A DNA stretch of 25,506 nt, from the IMG/VR virus record IMGVR_UViG_3300045257_000103, positions 1 through 25,506 of that record; one strand, written 5' to 3'. The notes beneath the pieces are model-generated. The model ran no database searches. It had not been told where the DNA came from and saw only the letters and a program-made list of their open reading frames with translations. The stretch comes from a virus. How positions within the stretch are numbered: position 1 is the first letter of the stretch; each line of letters begins with the position of its first letter. Both the position numbers and the translations under genes were made by a program. Of the stretch, positions 624-13,253 are shown piece after piece.

Positions 624-724
624 AGGTGTGTAGCCCGCGATACCTTCGAAGGCCGGGAATGATTCAATAGGCGCTGAAAACAACGTGATGAGAACAGTTG
701 GCGAAATCCCAACCACGCCTGCCA
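624..724 (+). ncRNA. tRNA-like RNA, 101 nt, isotype unresolved
   Basis: The ends are tRNA-like: acceptor AGGTGTG/CACGCCT (one G-U pair), G73, CCA, and a T-arm stem GTTGG/CCAAC with loop CGAAATC. The middle is about 25 nt too long and gives no clean D-arm or 5-bp/7-nt anticodon arm; it includes the self-complementary CCTTCGAAGG. It could be a degenerate tRNA, one carrying an insertion, or a tRNA mimic. Confidence 0.5.
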
Positions 725-740
725 AGATTTATAAGAGTTG

Positions 741-855
741 TGACCAATGAGAATATCGTAGGAAAGGTTTAATAGACCAGACCTCAATTGTACAGTATCT
801 ATGAAACGGTACTGTGGACTGTAGATAGCCTTTCTAATTTGAAAGCGTTCGGTCA
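741..855 (+). ncRNA. structured RNA between tRNA genes
   Basis: No plausible coding frame is seen. Helices nest: TGACC 741-745 with GGTCA 851-855; GAAAGG 762-767 with CCTTTC 829-834; ACAGTATC 792-799 with GGTACTGT 808-815 around an 8-nt loop. No T-arm or CCA end is present, so it is not a recognisable tRNA. Its position suggests transcription with the tRNA array. Confidence 0.35.
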
Positions 856-862
856 AGTTGCA

Positions 863-930
863 AATTTGATTGCGGAGAGTGACAGAAATGTCATCCCTGC
901 GTGCCGTAGCATCAGGCGAGCAATCAAATT
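863..930 (+). ncRNA. three-way-junction RNA upstream of tRNA-Phe
   Basis: An 11-bp perfect helix pairs 863-873 with 920-930. Inside it are TGACA-GAAA-TGTCA (880-893, a GAAA tetraloop hairpin) and CCTG/CAGG (896-899 with 913-916). It ends six bases before tRNA-Phe. I do not recognise the family. Confidence 0.4.
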
Positions 931-936
931 GAATTT

Positions 937-1188: not shown

Positions 1189-1195
1189 ACACAAT

Positions 1196-1279
1196 GGTGT
1201 CATCGTCTAAGAAAGGATACCGGCCTATCGCGCCGGAGATGTGAGAAGCTGGTACCGGCTAACTCATTAGACACCGCCA
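1196..1279 (+). tRNA. Asp-like tRNA (ATC) with T-arm hairpin
   Basis: Ends GGTGTC/GACACC, G73 and CCA. Perfect anticodon stem CCGGC/GCCGG encloses CTATCGC, anticodon ATC, otherwise resembling the Asp loop CTGTCAC. The T-stem GTGAG/CTCAT encloses 17 nt dominated by a self-complementary AGCTGGTACCGGCT in place of a T-loop. It may be a remodelled or decayed tRNA-Asp. Confidence 0.55.
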
Positions 1280-1283
1280 ACAT

Positions 1284-1450: not shown

Positions 1451-1525
1451 GATTCGTTAGCTCAGCGGCAGAGCGGCAGGTTGTTAACCTGCGGGTCATG
1501 GGTTCGATCCCCATACGAATCGCCA
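1451..1525 (+). tRNA. tRNA-Asn (GTT)
   Basis: Acceptor GATTCGT/ACGAATC, G73, CCA. Anticodon stem GCAGG/CCTGC encloses TTGTTAA, anticodon GTT. All arms are canonical. Confidence 0.94.
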
Positions 1526-1578: not shown

Positions 1579-1719
1579 GGGCGCGTGGCCGAGTGGACTA
1601 TGGCATCGGACTGTGGGCGAAGCGACTAACGGCGCTAATCGAGTTCAAATCTCGTAAGCCAAGAGTAATCCGACGTGGGGAAACCCCAATCACTGGTTCG
1701 AATCCAGTCGTTCCCGCCA
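1579..1719 (+). tRNA. class II tRNA interrupted in the anticodon loop
   Basis: Near-complementary ends GGGCGCG/CGTTCCC (one mismatch, one G-U), G73 and CCA, a class II D-arm (GGCCGAGTGGACTATGGC), variable arm TGGGGAAACCCCA and perfect T-arm ACTGG-TTCGAAT-CCAGT are all present. Anticodon stem TCGGA (1606-1610) pairs with TCCGA (1668-1672), but 57-58 nt lie between instead of 7. The insert contains hairpins AGCG/CGCT and CGAG-TTCAAAT-CTCG, the latter a T-arm look-alike. G73 with class II form suggests Ser, but the anticodon cannot be read. It may be spliced, chimeric or dead. Confidence 0.55.
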
Positions 1720-2982: not shown

Positions 2983-3067
2983 TTGTTAGATGCGGTAGAA
3001 AGCCAGCTTTCGTAATACCGTACACCTGAAAGACCTTCGGTACTGTGAGTCGAGTCTCACCTAACAA
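2983..3067 (+). ncRNA. tRNA-like RNA lacking CCA
   Basis: TTGTTAG pairs perfectly with CTAACAA (7 bp) at the ends of an 85-nt unit. Inside are CGGTA/TACCG enclosing GAAAG-CCAG-CTTTC, a hairpin ACC...GGT of variable-arm type, and GTGAG-TCGAGT-CTCAC in the T-arm position. There is no 5-bp/7-nt anticodon arm and the 3' end reads TGTA, not CCA. It lies between two tRNA-Ala genes. Confidence 0.45.
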
Positions 3068-3216: not shown

Positions 3217-3816
3217 ATGTATTCAGTATACAAAACCGTAAATCTGACCAATGGTAAGTATTACATTGGTGTTCATAAAACGGATGATCCAAATGATCGG
3301 TATTTGGGGTCTGGAAAATTACTTCAGACCGCCGTTAAGAAATATGGTATCGCCGGATTTGTTAAGCATGTTTTAGCCATATTCGATGATCCAGAGTCGG
3401 CCTTTGCTATGGAGGCAAATCTTGTGACCAAAGAAGTGGTAGCAAGTGGAAAATGCTACAATATGAAAATCGGCGGGTATGGAGGATTTGATCTAGTAAA
3501 TCAAACTAAGGATTGTAGTGATCCGATCTATTTACAGAAGCTTTCTGATTCGGCAAAAGCGCATCATAAACGCGGACACCCCGCAAGTTTCAAATATCGT
3601 CATGACAATAGATGCATGGGAAAATCGATCCCCGGATGGAAGCAAACTCAAGATGCAAAAGATCGAATGTCGGAAACTAAGCGTAAAAACAAAGTAGGAG
3701 TTGGTGAAAAGAACTCACAAGCTGGTACAATGTGGATAACCAATGAACTTTCCAATAGAAAGATCAATAAGTGCGACCCCTTACCAGAAGGGTGGCGCAA
3801 GGGTAGAAATATGTGA
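3217..3816 (+). CDS. GIY-YIG homing endonuclease
   Basis: A free-standing homing endonuclease that would nick or cut DNA to spread its own gene. The N-terminal GIY-YIG nuclease shows the first strand (YSVYKT, residues 2-7), KYYIG (14-18), the catalytic Arg in DRYLGSG (R28) and the metal-binding Glu in AMEANLV (E66). The C-terminal part has NUMOD-type DNA-binding segments (MGKSIPGW; KDRMSETKR) and ends with a MWITNE...LPEGWRKGR module typical of phage Seg-like enzymes. The start has a GAGAGGG ribosome-binding site and a late-promoter motif upstream. Its position inside a tRNA array, next to an orphan T-arm, fits invasion of a tRNA locus. The 199-residue length is normal for the family. Confidence 0.88.
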   Translation: MYSVYKTVNLTNGKYYIGVHKTDDPNDRYLGSGKLLQTAVKKYGIAGFVKHVLAIFDDPESAFAMEANLVTKEVVASGKCYNMKIGGYGGFDLVNQTKDCSDPIYLQKLSDSAKAHHKRGHPASFKYRHDNRCMGKSIPGWKQTQDAKDRMSETKRKNKVGVGEKNSQAGTMWITNELSNRKINKCDPLPEGWRKGRNM

Positions 3817-3823
3817 TATATTT

Positions 3824-3908
3824 GGAACGCTGACATAGTGGCCGTGTACCTGACTCTTAATCAGTGAGAGAAATCTCTAGCTCAGTTCGATTCTGAGGCG
3901 TTCCACCA
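3824..3908 (+). tRNA. tRNA-Lys (CTT) with class II variable arm
   Basis: Acceptor GGAACGC/GCGTTCC, A73, CCA. Anticodon stem CTGA/TCAG encloses CTCTTAA, anticodon CTT. The variable region is 16 nt with hairpin AGAGA/TCTCT, although Lys tRNAs are normally class I. The T-arm CTCAG-TTCGATT-CTGAG is perfect, so decay is not obvious. An ordinary Lys(CTT) lies at 3968. Confidence 0.82.
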
Positions 3909-4339: not shown

Positions 4340-4427
4340 GGGTCGTTGGCAGAATGGTTATGCATCGGACTTTTAATCCGGGAAGCGGAAATCTTCAATC
4401 TCGGTTCGATCCCGAGGCGACCCACCA
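4340..4427 (+). tRNA. tRNA-Lys (TTT) with class II variable arm
   Basis: Acceptor GGGTCGT/GCGACCC, A73, CCA. Anticodon stem TCGGA/TCCGG encloses CTTTTAA, anticodon TTT. The variable region forms GAAG-CGGAAAT-CTTC, a long class II arm. T-arm CTCGG-TTCGATC-CCGAG is perfect. A class I Lys(TTT) with nearly the same acceptor lies at 4905. The ACAAT leader abuts its 5' end. Confidence 0.85.
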
Positions 4428-12222: not shown

Positions 12223-12633
12223 ATGACCAACATACAAAAGCCGAACGTGCAAAAACTCACCCCGGAACAGATTGACAATGTCAATAAGGGGAAGTTTTCA
12301 CGTGGCAAAATTCCAGCAAACAACAAACTCTGGTACCCGTATAAGGGGCCATGGGAACAAATCGTCACGCCTTTGATTGAGCGTTGCAATACTCTCGGCC
12401 TGACCATTTGGGAAATCAAAGAGAAGTGGGGTAGTCTGCGTTTCACGACTGGAAGCGTGGATGAATCATTCACAACCCCCGACTTTGAGGCCATCCATGT
12501 CCTACAGAACGATATCGAGAATGCCTGCTCTGCATCCTATACCCTGTGCGAAATCTGCTGTCAGCCGGGGAAAGGCCGTAACAATGGACATCACGTCTTT
12601 GTGGCGTGCGACGAACATGCGATAAAACGATGA
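12223..12633 (+). CDS. hypothetical protein with C-terminal zinc site, 136 aa
   Basis: The middle contains KLWYPYKGPWEQIVTPLIER and IWEIKEKWGSLRFTTGSVD. The C-terminus has CEICCQPGKGRNN (near residue 107) and FVACDEHA, together CxxC...CxxH, a probable zinc-binding knuckle. I recognise this architecture from uncharacterised phage proteins. ATG 12223 is preceded by TAAGG. The stop overlaps the RNA ligase start (ATGA), so translation is coupled. Confidence 0.75.
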   Translation: MTNIQKPNVQKLTPEQIDNVNKGKFSRGKIPANNKLWYPYKGPWEQIVTPLIERCNTLGLTIWEIKEKWGSLRFTTGSVDESFTTPDFEAIHVLQNDIENACSASYTLCEICCQPGKGRNNGHHVFVACDEHAIKR

Positions 12634-13253
12634 AAGCCTATCCATCCATCACCACCAAGATTGACTTTACGAAACCTGCCGTCGTGTTTGACAAACTCGA
12701 CGGTTCGAATATCCGTGCGGAATGGAGTCCCAAACAGGGATTCTATAAATTCGGGTCAAGAACACAACTTCTGACTCCAGACCAGACTCAGTTGTACCCC
12801 GCAATCGATAAGATTCTTGCTGATTTCGGCGAGGAACTGTCAGTCCGATTCCGTCAAAAGAAAATGGAGCGTGCGGTTGCTTTCTTCGAATACGGTGGCC
12901 CAAACTCTTTTGCTGGGTCGCATCCTGACCCCGTGGAAGACCTTACAGCCACCATCATCGACGTGTCTGTGTACAAGAAAGGCTTTATGGCTCCTGACGC
13001 GTTCATTCAGTTTACAGATGGTTTGAGGACGCCACGAGTCTTGTTCAGGGGGCGAATGGATGAGGATTTCTTTCAATCCGTGCGCCATTCGACCCTTCCG
13101 GGCATGACATTCGAGGGTGTGGTGGGAAAGAGCTTAGAAACTGTTCATAGTGAAGGTGGCCCCATCATGTTCAAAATCAAGTCGAATGCTTGGCTTGACA
13201 AGTTGAAGACGTTCTGTAATAATGATGAACAGATGTTTAACCGATTGAAGTGA
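12630..13253 (+). CDS. RNA ligase (nucleotidyltransferase domain)
   Basis: ATP-dependent ligase-family enzyme that seals RNA (or nicked nucleic acid) through a lysine-adenylate. Motif I is DKLDGSN with catalytic Lys22; motif III is FFEYGG (Glu87); motif IV is FEGVVG (162-167); motif V is MFKIKS with Lys182 and Lys184. These fit the Rnl2-like core. At 207 residues it is little more than the adenylyltransferase domain. The start overlaps the upstream stop by 4 bases. In T4, RNA ligase repairs host tRNA-Lys cut by the PrrC defence. Here four tRNA-Lys genes are encoded nearby, so tRNA repair is the likely role (inference). Confidence 0.82.
   Translation: MKAYPSITTKIDFTKPAVVFDKLDGSNIRAEWSPKQGFYKFGSRTQLLTPDQTQLYPAIDKILADFGEELSVRFRQKKMERAVAFFEYGGPNSFAGSHPDPVEDLTATIIDVSVYKKGFMAPDAFIQFTDGLRTPRVLFRGRMDEDFFQSVRHSTLPGMTFEGVVGKSLETVHSEGGPIMFKIKSNAWLDKLKTFCNNDEQMFNRLK

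What the first reader, a model, noticed from the sequence alone, without database searches (positions are those of the whole stretch)
1579..1719. Class II tRNA with about 51 extra bases in the anticodon loop
Acceptor ends, D-arm, variable arm, T-arm and CCA are all present, and TCGGA/TCCGA can form an anticodon stem, but the loop is 57-58 nt. The insert contains an internal AGCG/CGCT hairpin and a second T-arm-like hairpin (CGAG-TTCAAAT-CTCG). It is too small for a self-splicing intron. A new type of intron, a tandem recombination of two tRNAs, or an anticodon-masking insertion are candidates.
Basis: seen in the sequence. Interest (0 to 1): 0.7.

Follow-up and report, generated by a model that had tools for sequence, protein, structure and literature searches.

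The report
Tiny tRNA-like intron in phage tRNA
A large bacterial virus carries an asparagine tRNA gene whose anticodon is split by a 51-base insert folded like a miniature tRNA; the same kind of insert, with the same structure and usually at the same site, occurs in about 20 other virus tRNA genes, including three in cultured viruses, so it is very probably a little-known kind of tRNA intron rather than a broken gene.

Summary
Window 1579-1719 is a class II tRNA whose anticodon loop is 58 nt. It is neither a pseudogene nor a chance fusion. I found about 20 further phage tRNA genes with a related insert. They are Asn(GUU), Lys(UUU) and Tyr(GUA), in class I and class II bodies. Most sit in large phages, including cultured Agrobacterium phage Atu_ph07 (one Asn, one Lys gene) and Salicola phage SCTP-2. 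In this family the insert lies between nt 35 and 36, and joining the flanks gives a canonical 7-nt loop (window: CUGUUAA = Asn GUU). Uninterrupted tRNA-Asn genes of both classes match with one clean gap. Insert stems covary strongly: 12 of 15 pairs change on both sides. The insert resembles an acceptor-plus-T-arm minihelix; its 3' strand runs 12 nt past the T-loop in 14 of 21 members, as in tRNA, but 11 nt in the window and the Lys genes. Best explanation: an intron cut at its 5' end by host RNase P, at its 3' end by another nuclease, and sealed by a phage RNA ligase. Splicing is inferred, not shown. Phage tRNA introns were reported in Lak megaphages (Devoto 2019) as 'enigmatic'. The family, site, structure, cultured carriers and testable mechanism appear new.

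The parts
1579..1719 (+). Interrupted class II tRNA-Asn(GUU) gene, encoded GCCA end
   Evidence: Rfam tRNA 36.8 bits; ARAGORN with intron option; joined flanks called tRNA-Asn(gtt)
1606..1610 (+). anticodon stem 5' strand TCGGA, pairs with 1669-1673
   Evidence: all cells paired in 14 homologues, 4 of 5 pairs with two-sided changes
1611..1614 (+). 5' exon part of the anticodon loop, CTGT (nt 32-35)
   Evidence: present in all Asn members
1615..1665 (+). 51-nt insert (intron), between U35 and U36
   Evidence: junction gives CTGTTAA; single clean gap at this site against the intron-free class II tRNA-Asn of L262 and L270
1616..1618 (+). P1 5' strand GGC, pairs with 1658-1660 (acceptor-like helix)
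   Evidence: position held by GGTG/CACC, GAAG/CTTC, GGCGCT/AGCGCC etc. in relatives
1621..1636 (+). D-arm-like hairpin AGCG-ACTAACGG-CGCT
   Evidence: a 4-bp hairpin of differing sequence in all 10 hairpin-type Asn/Lys members
1640..1654 (+). T-arm-like hairpin CGAG-TTCAAAT-CTCG
   Evidence: helix 3: 4 of 5 pairs with two-sided changes
1658..1665 (+). P1 3' strand GCC, then A (opposite G1) and 4-nt tail AGAG
   Evidence: tail of 4 nt before exon 2 in all 21 members
1666..1668 (+). 3' exon part of the anticodon loop, TAA (nt 36-38)
1669..1673 (+). anticodon stem 3' strand TCCGA
1451..1525 (+). Separate uninterrupted class I tRNA-Asn(GUU)
   Evidence: ARAGORN; pattern
12606..13253 (+). Candidate RNA ligase (Rnl2-like); proposed sealing enzyme
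   Evidence: phrog_548 E 1.2e-14; Pfam PF09414 E 5.8e-5, 23.7 bits, below its cut-off of 27

Best explanation
The insert is an intron of a phage tRNA-Asn(GUU) gene, lying between the second and third anticodon letters. Shown by comparison: conserved site, a canonical 7-nt loop on joining, conserved secondary structure with compensatory changes, intron-free counterparts. Inferred: it is removed from the RNA. Proposed mechanism: the intron folds as a tRNA-like minihelix (acceptor-like P1 stacked on a T-arm, with a D-arm-like hairpin or AAAGG linker that may dock on the T-loop). Host RNase P measures from the T-loop and cuts at U35|G1. A second nuclease (a 3' tRNA-end enzyme such as RNase Z is one candidate) cuts after the 4-nt tail. 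A phage ATP-dependent RNA ligase, of the kind that mends anticodon-nicked tRNAs, joins the 3'-OH and 5'-phosphate ends. My estimates: excised intron 0.75; RNase P makes the 5' cut 0.45; phage ligase seals 0.45; the whole chain about 0.3. The confidence given is for an excised intron with a tRNA-like fold, not for every enzyme.
For: Related inserts were found by routes that did not fix the junction: D-arm/T-arm spacing scans gave L019a and L026 and L072; BLAST gave Atu_ph07 and SCTP-2. Covariation; RNAalifold finds the same helices unaided. Joined flanks are called tRNA-Asn, Lys or Tyr in 18 of 21 cases; one failure is truncated. Uninterrupted class I tRNA-Asn genes align with one clean gap at CTGT|TAA to L199, Atu_ph07, L173 and L221; 29 uninterrupted class II tRNA-Asn(GUU) genes with the window's D-arm type exist. 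Stack geometry: the 3' strand from T-loop to the nt opposite G1 is 12 nt in 14 members and 11 in 7, while the stretch on the 5' side varies from 7 to 38 nt. RNase P is a ruler for this stack and cuts non-tRNA mimics (PMC4919913). In G001, G002, G006, G010, G034, Atu_ph07 and SCTP-2 no uninterrupted CTGTTAA tRNA-Asn was found. RNA ligase-like genes lie in the window and in all eight records over 100 kb that carry the family.
Against: No transcript data. The window and all six Lys members have an 11-nt, not 12-nt, strand; the window's P1 is only 3 bp; the family lacks a conserved CCA, which RNase P favours. The 3' nuclease is unidentified. Several search patterns presupposed CTNTGG...TAA, so constancy of the site is partly by construction. 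SCTP-2's junction did not come out of the free alignment to class I genes.
Confidence: 0.7

Rival explanations
1. The insert is never removed. The RNA works unspliced, for instance as a decoy, a carrier of amino acid, or a tRNA whose anticodon is hidden from anticodon nucleases.
For: Phages meet host anticodon nucleases and carry repair enzymes (PMC7824862). The window has a second, intact tRNA-Asn, so this copy need not decode.
Against: Joining restores an exact canonical 7-nt loop of one isotype, which this reading leaves unexplained. In seven records, five of them metagenomic, no uninterrupted CTGTTAA tRNA-Asn was found.
Confidence: 0.17
2. Self-splicing by a small, undescribed ribozyme in or around the intron.
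For: Conserved unpaired nucleotides flank the junctions (CUNU|G ... A|ARAG|UAA).
Against: 43-51 nt (71 in Tyr) is far below group I or II size; no group I family match in the window. No invariant core beyond T-loop and junctions; tails vary (AAAG, ACAG, AGAT, AACC).
Confidence: 0.07
3. Protein splicing of archaeal/eukaryotic bulge-helix-bulge type by a tRNA endonuclease.
For: RNAalifold adds a C32-G, U33-A mini-helix that leaves UAA as a 3-nt bulge at the 3' junction.
Against: No tRNA_int_endo (PF01974) in 14 records, controls positive; no RtcB either. The named hosts, Agrobacterium and Salicola, are bacteria. The 5' side is an internal loop, not a bulge. Some Lys tails cannot form the mini-helix.
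Confidence: 0.03
4. Pseudogene or accidental tandem fusion of two tRNAs.
For: The insert carries a second T-arm; some other phage tRNAs in the scans look like tRNA mosaics.
Against: About 20 homologous inserts with compensatory changes; two copies in one phage (L019) keep the stems with different sequences.
Confidence: 0.03

Closest known systems
Lak megaphage tRNA introns (Devoto et al. 2019, PMC6784885)
   Same: Introns in tRNA genes of very large phages, type unknown ('enigmatic'); one in tRNA-Thr(TGT) 'itself may encode a tRNA'; one in tRNA-Tyr(GTA).
   Different: No structural family, splice position across isotypes, covariation, cultured carrier or mechanism is given in the passages on introns that I read.
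Group I introns in bacterial tRNAs
   Same: They interrupt the anticodon loop, and the 5' exons here end in U as in group I introns (own knowledge).
   Different: Group I introns are about 200 nt or more with a conserved catalytic core; these are 43-71 nt with none.
Archaeal/eukaryotic tRNA introns (bulge-helix-bulge; PMC4090602)
   Same: Short, structured, in the anticodon loop.
   Different: Those are mostly one nucleotide 3' of the anticodon and removed by protein splicing machinery; these lie inside the anticodon, in bacterial viruses in which that endonuclease was not found.
tRNA-like RNase P substrates (tmRNA and others listed in PMC4919913)
   Same: Acceptor-like helix stacked on a T-arm, the geometry RNase P measures.
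   Different: Here the mimic sits inside another tRNA, and cleavage would open its anticodon.
T4-type tRNA repair (polynucleotide kinase and RNA ligase against anticodon nucleases)
   Same: Sealing a break in the anticodon loop; phage RNA ligase present.
   Different: There the break is host damage; here it would be a programmed step of tRNA maturation.

Membership tests
This tRNA-like intron family (model R1) | insert between nt 35 and 36 whose removal leaves a canonical 7-nt loop | tested here: met
   CTGT|...|TAA gives CTGTTAA; joined flanks called Asn(gtt)
This tRNA-like intron family (model R1) | P1 plus T-arm inside an intact anticodon stem, covarying | tested here: met
   window scores 55.6 bits (it is in the training set)
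This tRNA-like intron family (model R1) | majority trait, not defining: 12-nt 3' strand from T-loop to the nt opposite G1 | tested here: not met
   11 nt in the window and in all six Lys members; 12 in 13 Asn and 1 Tyr
Group I intron | about 200 nt or more with a conserved catalytic core | tested here: not met
   43-71 nt; no group I match in the window
Archaeal-type BHB intron | tRNA splicing endonuclease available | tested here: not met
   PF01974 absent in 14 records, controls positive; named hosts are bacteria
Archaeal-type BHB intron | two 3-nt bulges separated by 4 bp | tested here: not met
   one 3-nt bulge, 2 bp, then a 3x3 internal loop
Lak phage tRNA introns | sequence or structure shared with the published introns | not testable with these tools
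   published sequences are in a supplement that could not be opened
RNase P substrate mimic | acceptor/T-arm stack with cleavage at its 5' end | tested here: inconclusive
   geometry fits in 14 of 21 and is one nt short in 7; cleavage not tested
RNase P substrate mimic | 3' RCCA (favoured, not essential) | tested here: not met
   tails ARAG and similar; literal CCA only in two possible distant cases, L087 and L119
tRNA-Asn | GUU anticodon and G73 | tested here: met
   after joining; GCCA end at 1716-1719; 29 intron-free class II phage tRNA-Asn genes of the same type

The most novel reading that the evidence does not exclude
A distinct class of tRNA intron in bacterial viruses. The intron is a miniature tRNA; the host's own tRNA-end processing cuts it out of the middle of the anticodon, and a phage RNA ligase seals the halves. 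The tRNA would then mature only where that ligase is present, which might also shield the anticodon from anticodon nucleases until late.
Probability: 0.3. Interest if true: 0.93.

Novelty: new variant of a known kind. Interest (0 to 1): 0.82.

Why it matters
Apart from self-splicing introns, tRNA introns are regarded as an archaeal and eukaryotic trait, and the phage tRNA introns reported in 2019 were left unexplained. Here is a defined family with a conserved fold, mostly one site, and cultured carriers (Atu_ph07 in A. tumefaciens C58; SCTP-2 in Salicola), so splicing can be tested directly. If the mechanism holds, RNase P and a repair ligase would form a tRNA splicing pathway in bacteria. 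It also means phage tRNA counts made without an intron option can be too low: ARAGORN's default missed this gene.

Tried and rejected
1) Relatives through the downstream protein or the capsid protein: a few weak or no matches. 2) BLAST of the window gene and of L026: only generic tRNA matches. 3) Bacterial genomes: the only two matches in genome contigs look like chance, with no tRNA context. 4) Weak model hits L054, L131, L080, G002:117832 and G019:106390 rejected on inspection: no interrupted tRNA seen. 5) ARAGORN isotypes Thr(agt), His(gtg), Tyr(gta, in Atu_ph07) and Lys(ctt) for family members are junction artefacts. 6) Archaeal endonuclease and RtcB: not found. 8) A finder requiring an all-paired stack gave mostly 11 bp with 9 nt left over, i.e. 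12 with 7 only if the G1-A mismatch is counted, so the '12 + 4 leaves 7' rule is a reading, not an independent result. 9) MAFFT on the hairpin type misaligned the D-like hairpin; it was judged sequence by sequence.

Full report
WHAT IS THERE. The window is a whole 25.5-kb IMG/VR viral record with a dense tRNA array. At 1579-1719 lies a class II tRNA with a 58-nt anticodon loop. Rfam's tRNA model finds it at 36.8 bits. ARAGORN finds it only when introns are allowed, with a 51-nt insert. Folded alone, the RNA is no more stable than shuffled sequence, so the case rests on relatives.

RELATIVES. A scan for Ser-like D-arm and T-arm sequences set too far apart gave 33 viral contigs. Two of them, L019 (315-kb contig) and L026 (130 kb), carry the same kind of insert. 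A scan for the insert's own features gave the same insert in class I tRNA bodies (L047, L048). Further scans added L072, L173, L174, L177/L178, L179, L214/L222 and L221. ARAGORN on the tRNA clusters added Lys members (L199, L203, L214) and a class II Tyr member (L202), and a covariance model added two more Lys-type genes that ARAGORN had missed (L198, L194). BLAST against annotated phages gave two cultured carriers in which the gene is not annotated: Agrobacterium phage Atu_ph07 and Salicola phage SCTP-2. Atu_ph07 has a second copy, in tRNA-Lys(UUU).

THE SITE. In the 21 tabulated members the insert lies between nt 35 and 36. Joining the flanks gives CTGTTAA (Asn), CTTTTAA (Lys) or CTGTAAA (Tyr), and ARAGORN then calls an ordinary tRNA of that type in 18; the exceptions are one truncated gene and two with unusual bodies. 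Some search patterns required this junction, so its constancy is partly built in. It is backed by alignments to uninterrupted genes: phage tRNA-Asn genes of OLIVR5, HRTV-13 and TPWB06 align to four interrupted class I genes with one clean gap at CTGT|TAA, and 29 uninterrupted class II tRNA-Asn(GUU) genes with the window's D-arm type were found in 28 viral loci. So the window gene is a class II tRNA-Asn, a body type that is itself common in large phages.

THE STRUCTURE. On 14 aligned sequences the named structure (anticodon stem, P1, T-stem) pairs in 94.2% of cells, against 63.5% in shuffles and 30-46% when slid. Twelve of 15 pairs change on both sides, and the covariation score is 0.81 against 0.21 in shuffles. 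RNAalifold, given no structure, finds the same helices and adds C32-G and U33-A. Ten Asn/Lys members also have a 4-bp D-arm-like hairpin of different sequence; the other Asn members have a short linker, often with AAAGG. The two copies in L019 keep their stems with different sequences. The 3' strand from the T-loop to the nt opposite G1 is 12 nt in 14 members, as in tRNA (5 bp T-stem plus 7 bp acceptor), and 11 nt in the window and the six Lys members; a 4-nt tail follows in all. The stretch on the 5' side varies from 7 to 38 nt.

MECHANISM. RNase P measures the acceptor/T-arm stack and cuts other RNAs that present it (PMC4919913). The fold predicts a cut at, or one nt from, U35|G1, and RNase P would leave the 3'-OH that T4-type RNA ligases need (established knowledge). 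The 3' cut is unassigned. An RNA ligase-like gene is in the window (phrog_548 E 1.2e-14; weak by Pfam), in every carrier record over 100 kb, and in Atu_ph07 within about 1.3 kb of the interrupted tRNA-Lys (PF09414 E 5e-25). Controls have it in 8 of 19 and are smaller on the whole, so this is only consistent. Archaeal-type endonuclease and RtcB were not found. In seven records (G001, G002, G006, G010, G034, Atu_ph07, SCTP-2) no uninterrupted CTGTTAA tRNA-Asn was found; five are metagenomic and may be incomplete, and only this loop and T-arm form was sought. The window, G003, G005 and G007-G009 do have an additional intact tRNA-Asn.

POSSIBLE DISTANT KIN. L087 (4219-4339) and L119 (c5276-5402) have inserts that end in literal UCCA and GCCA. 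Applying the tRNA rule (12-nt stack, N73-N76) to them also leaves 7-nt loops, but at other sites: CTT|ATAA and CTTTT|AA. If right, the insertion site is not always 35/36. These are suggestions; their R1 scores are only 18-19 bits.

WHAT IS KNOWN. Devoto et al. 2019 (PMC6784885) reported introns in Lak megaphage tRNAs, called them enigmatic, and noted that one may itself encode a tRNA. My literature searches (open-access papers only) found no explanation since. The phenomenon of phage tRNA introns is therefore known; the family, fold, site, cultured carriers and mechanism proposal appear new. Shown: family, site, structure, empty sites. Inferred: excision. Proposed: the enzymes.

Noticed in passing
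window 626-729: Uncalled tRNA-like stretch: 7-bp acceptor AGGTGTG/CACGCCT with GCCA, T-arm-like hairpin with an atypical loop; read by eye only.
   Followed up: no
window 1190-1280: tRNA-like gene not called by ARAGORN or Rfam: GGTGTC/GACACC acceptor, CCGGC/GCCGG anticodon stem, and an AGCTGG-TAC-CGGCT hairpin apparently inside the T-loop.
   Followed up: no
window 2993-3066: tRNA-like stretch with GTTAG/CTAAC ends and a T-loop that seems one base short.
   Followed up: no
window 760-935: Region between tRNA genes with a long inverted repeat (CAAATTTGATTGC/GCAATCAAATTG) and inner hairpins; possible structured RNA.
   Followed up: no
window 3824-3908, 4340-4427: tRNAs called Lys (CUU, UUU) with long class II variable arms, like the class II tRNA-Asn type.
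   Followed up: no
window 3217-3816: Homing endonuclease gene (phrog_314, E 1e-37; also a GIY-YIG family) inside the tRNA array.
   Followed up: no
L128, L257-L283: 28 viral contigs carry uninterrupted class II tRNA-Asn(GUU) genes with Ser-like D-arms: a widespread phage tRNA type that departs from the class I body usual for Asn.
   Followed up: partly
L123 2224-2380, 3871-4023, 5005-5159; also L206 8313-8465: Four tRNAs of one phage with 78-84 nt inserts; at least three contain an internal T-arm hairpin. Possibly a longer kind of the same phenomenon.
   Followed up: partly
L087 4219-4339 and L119 5276-5402 (minus strand): Minihelix-like inserts ending in UCCA/GCCA whose removal by the tRNA rule leaves 7-nt loops at other positions.
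   Followed up: partly
L053, L058, L079, L090, L108, L135, L157, L167, L169: Large group of phage tRNA-like genes with a D-arm and T-arm but a long middle containing motifs such as TTACAGCAA or AAGAGTTACTT; possibly Y-RNA-like, not identified.
   Followed up: no
L012, L016, L018, L023, L025, L044: Recurrent class II tRNA-like RNA (GGAAGGATGGCTGAGTGG...GGAATAA...GCTGAA...CGTAGGACATCGCGGG) with no normal anticodon arm; L034 and L041 look related.
   Followed up: no
L199 6666-6787; L188 664-771: Two other phage tRNAs with 33-36 nt anticodon-loop inserts forming a plain long hairpin without a T-arm.
   Followed up: no
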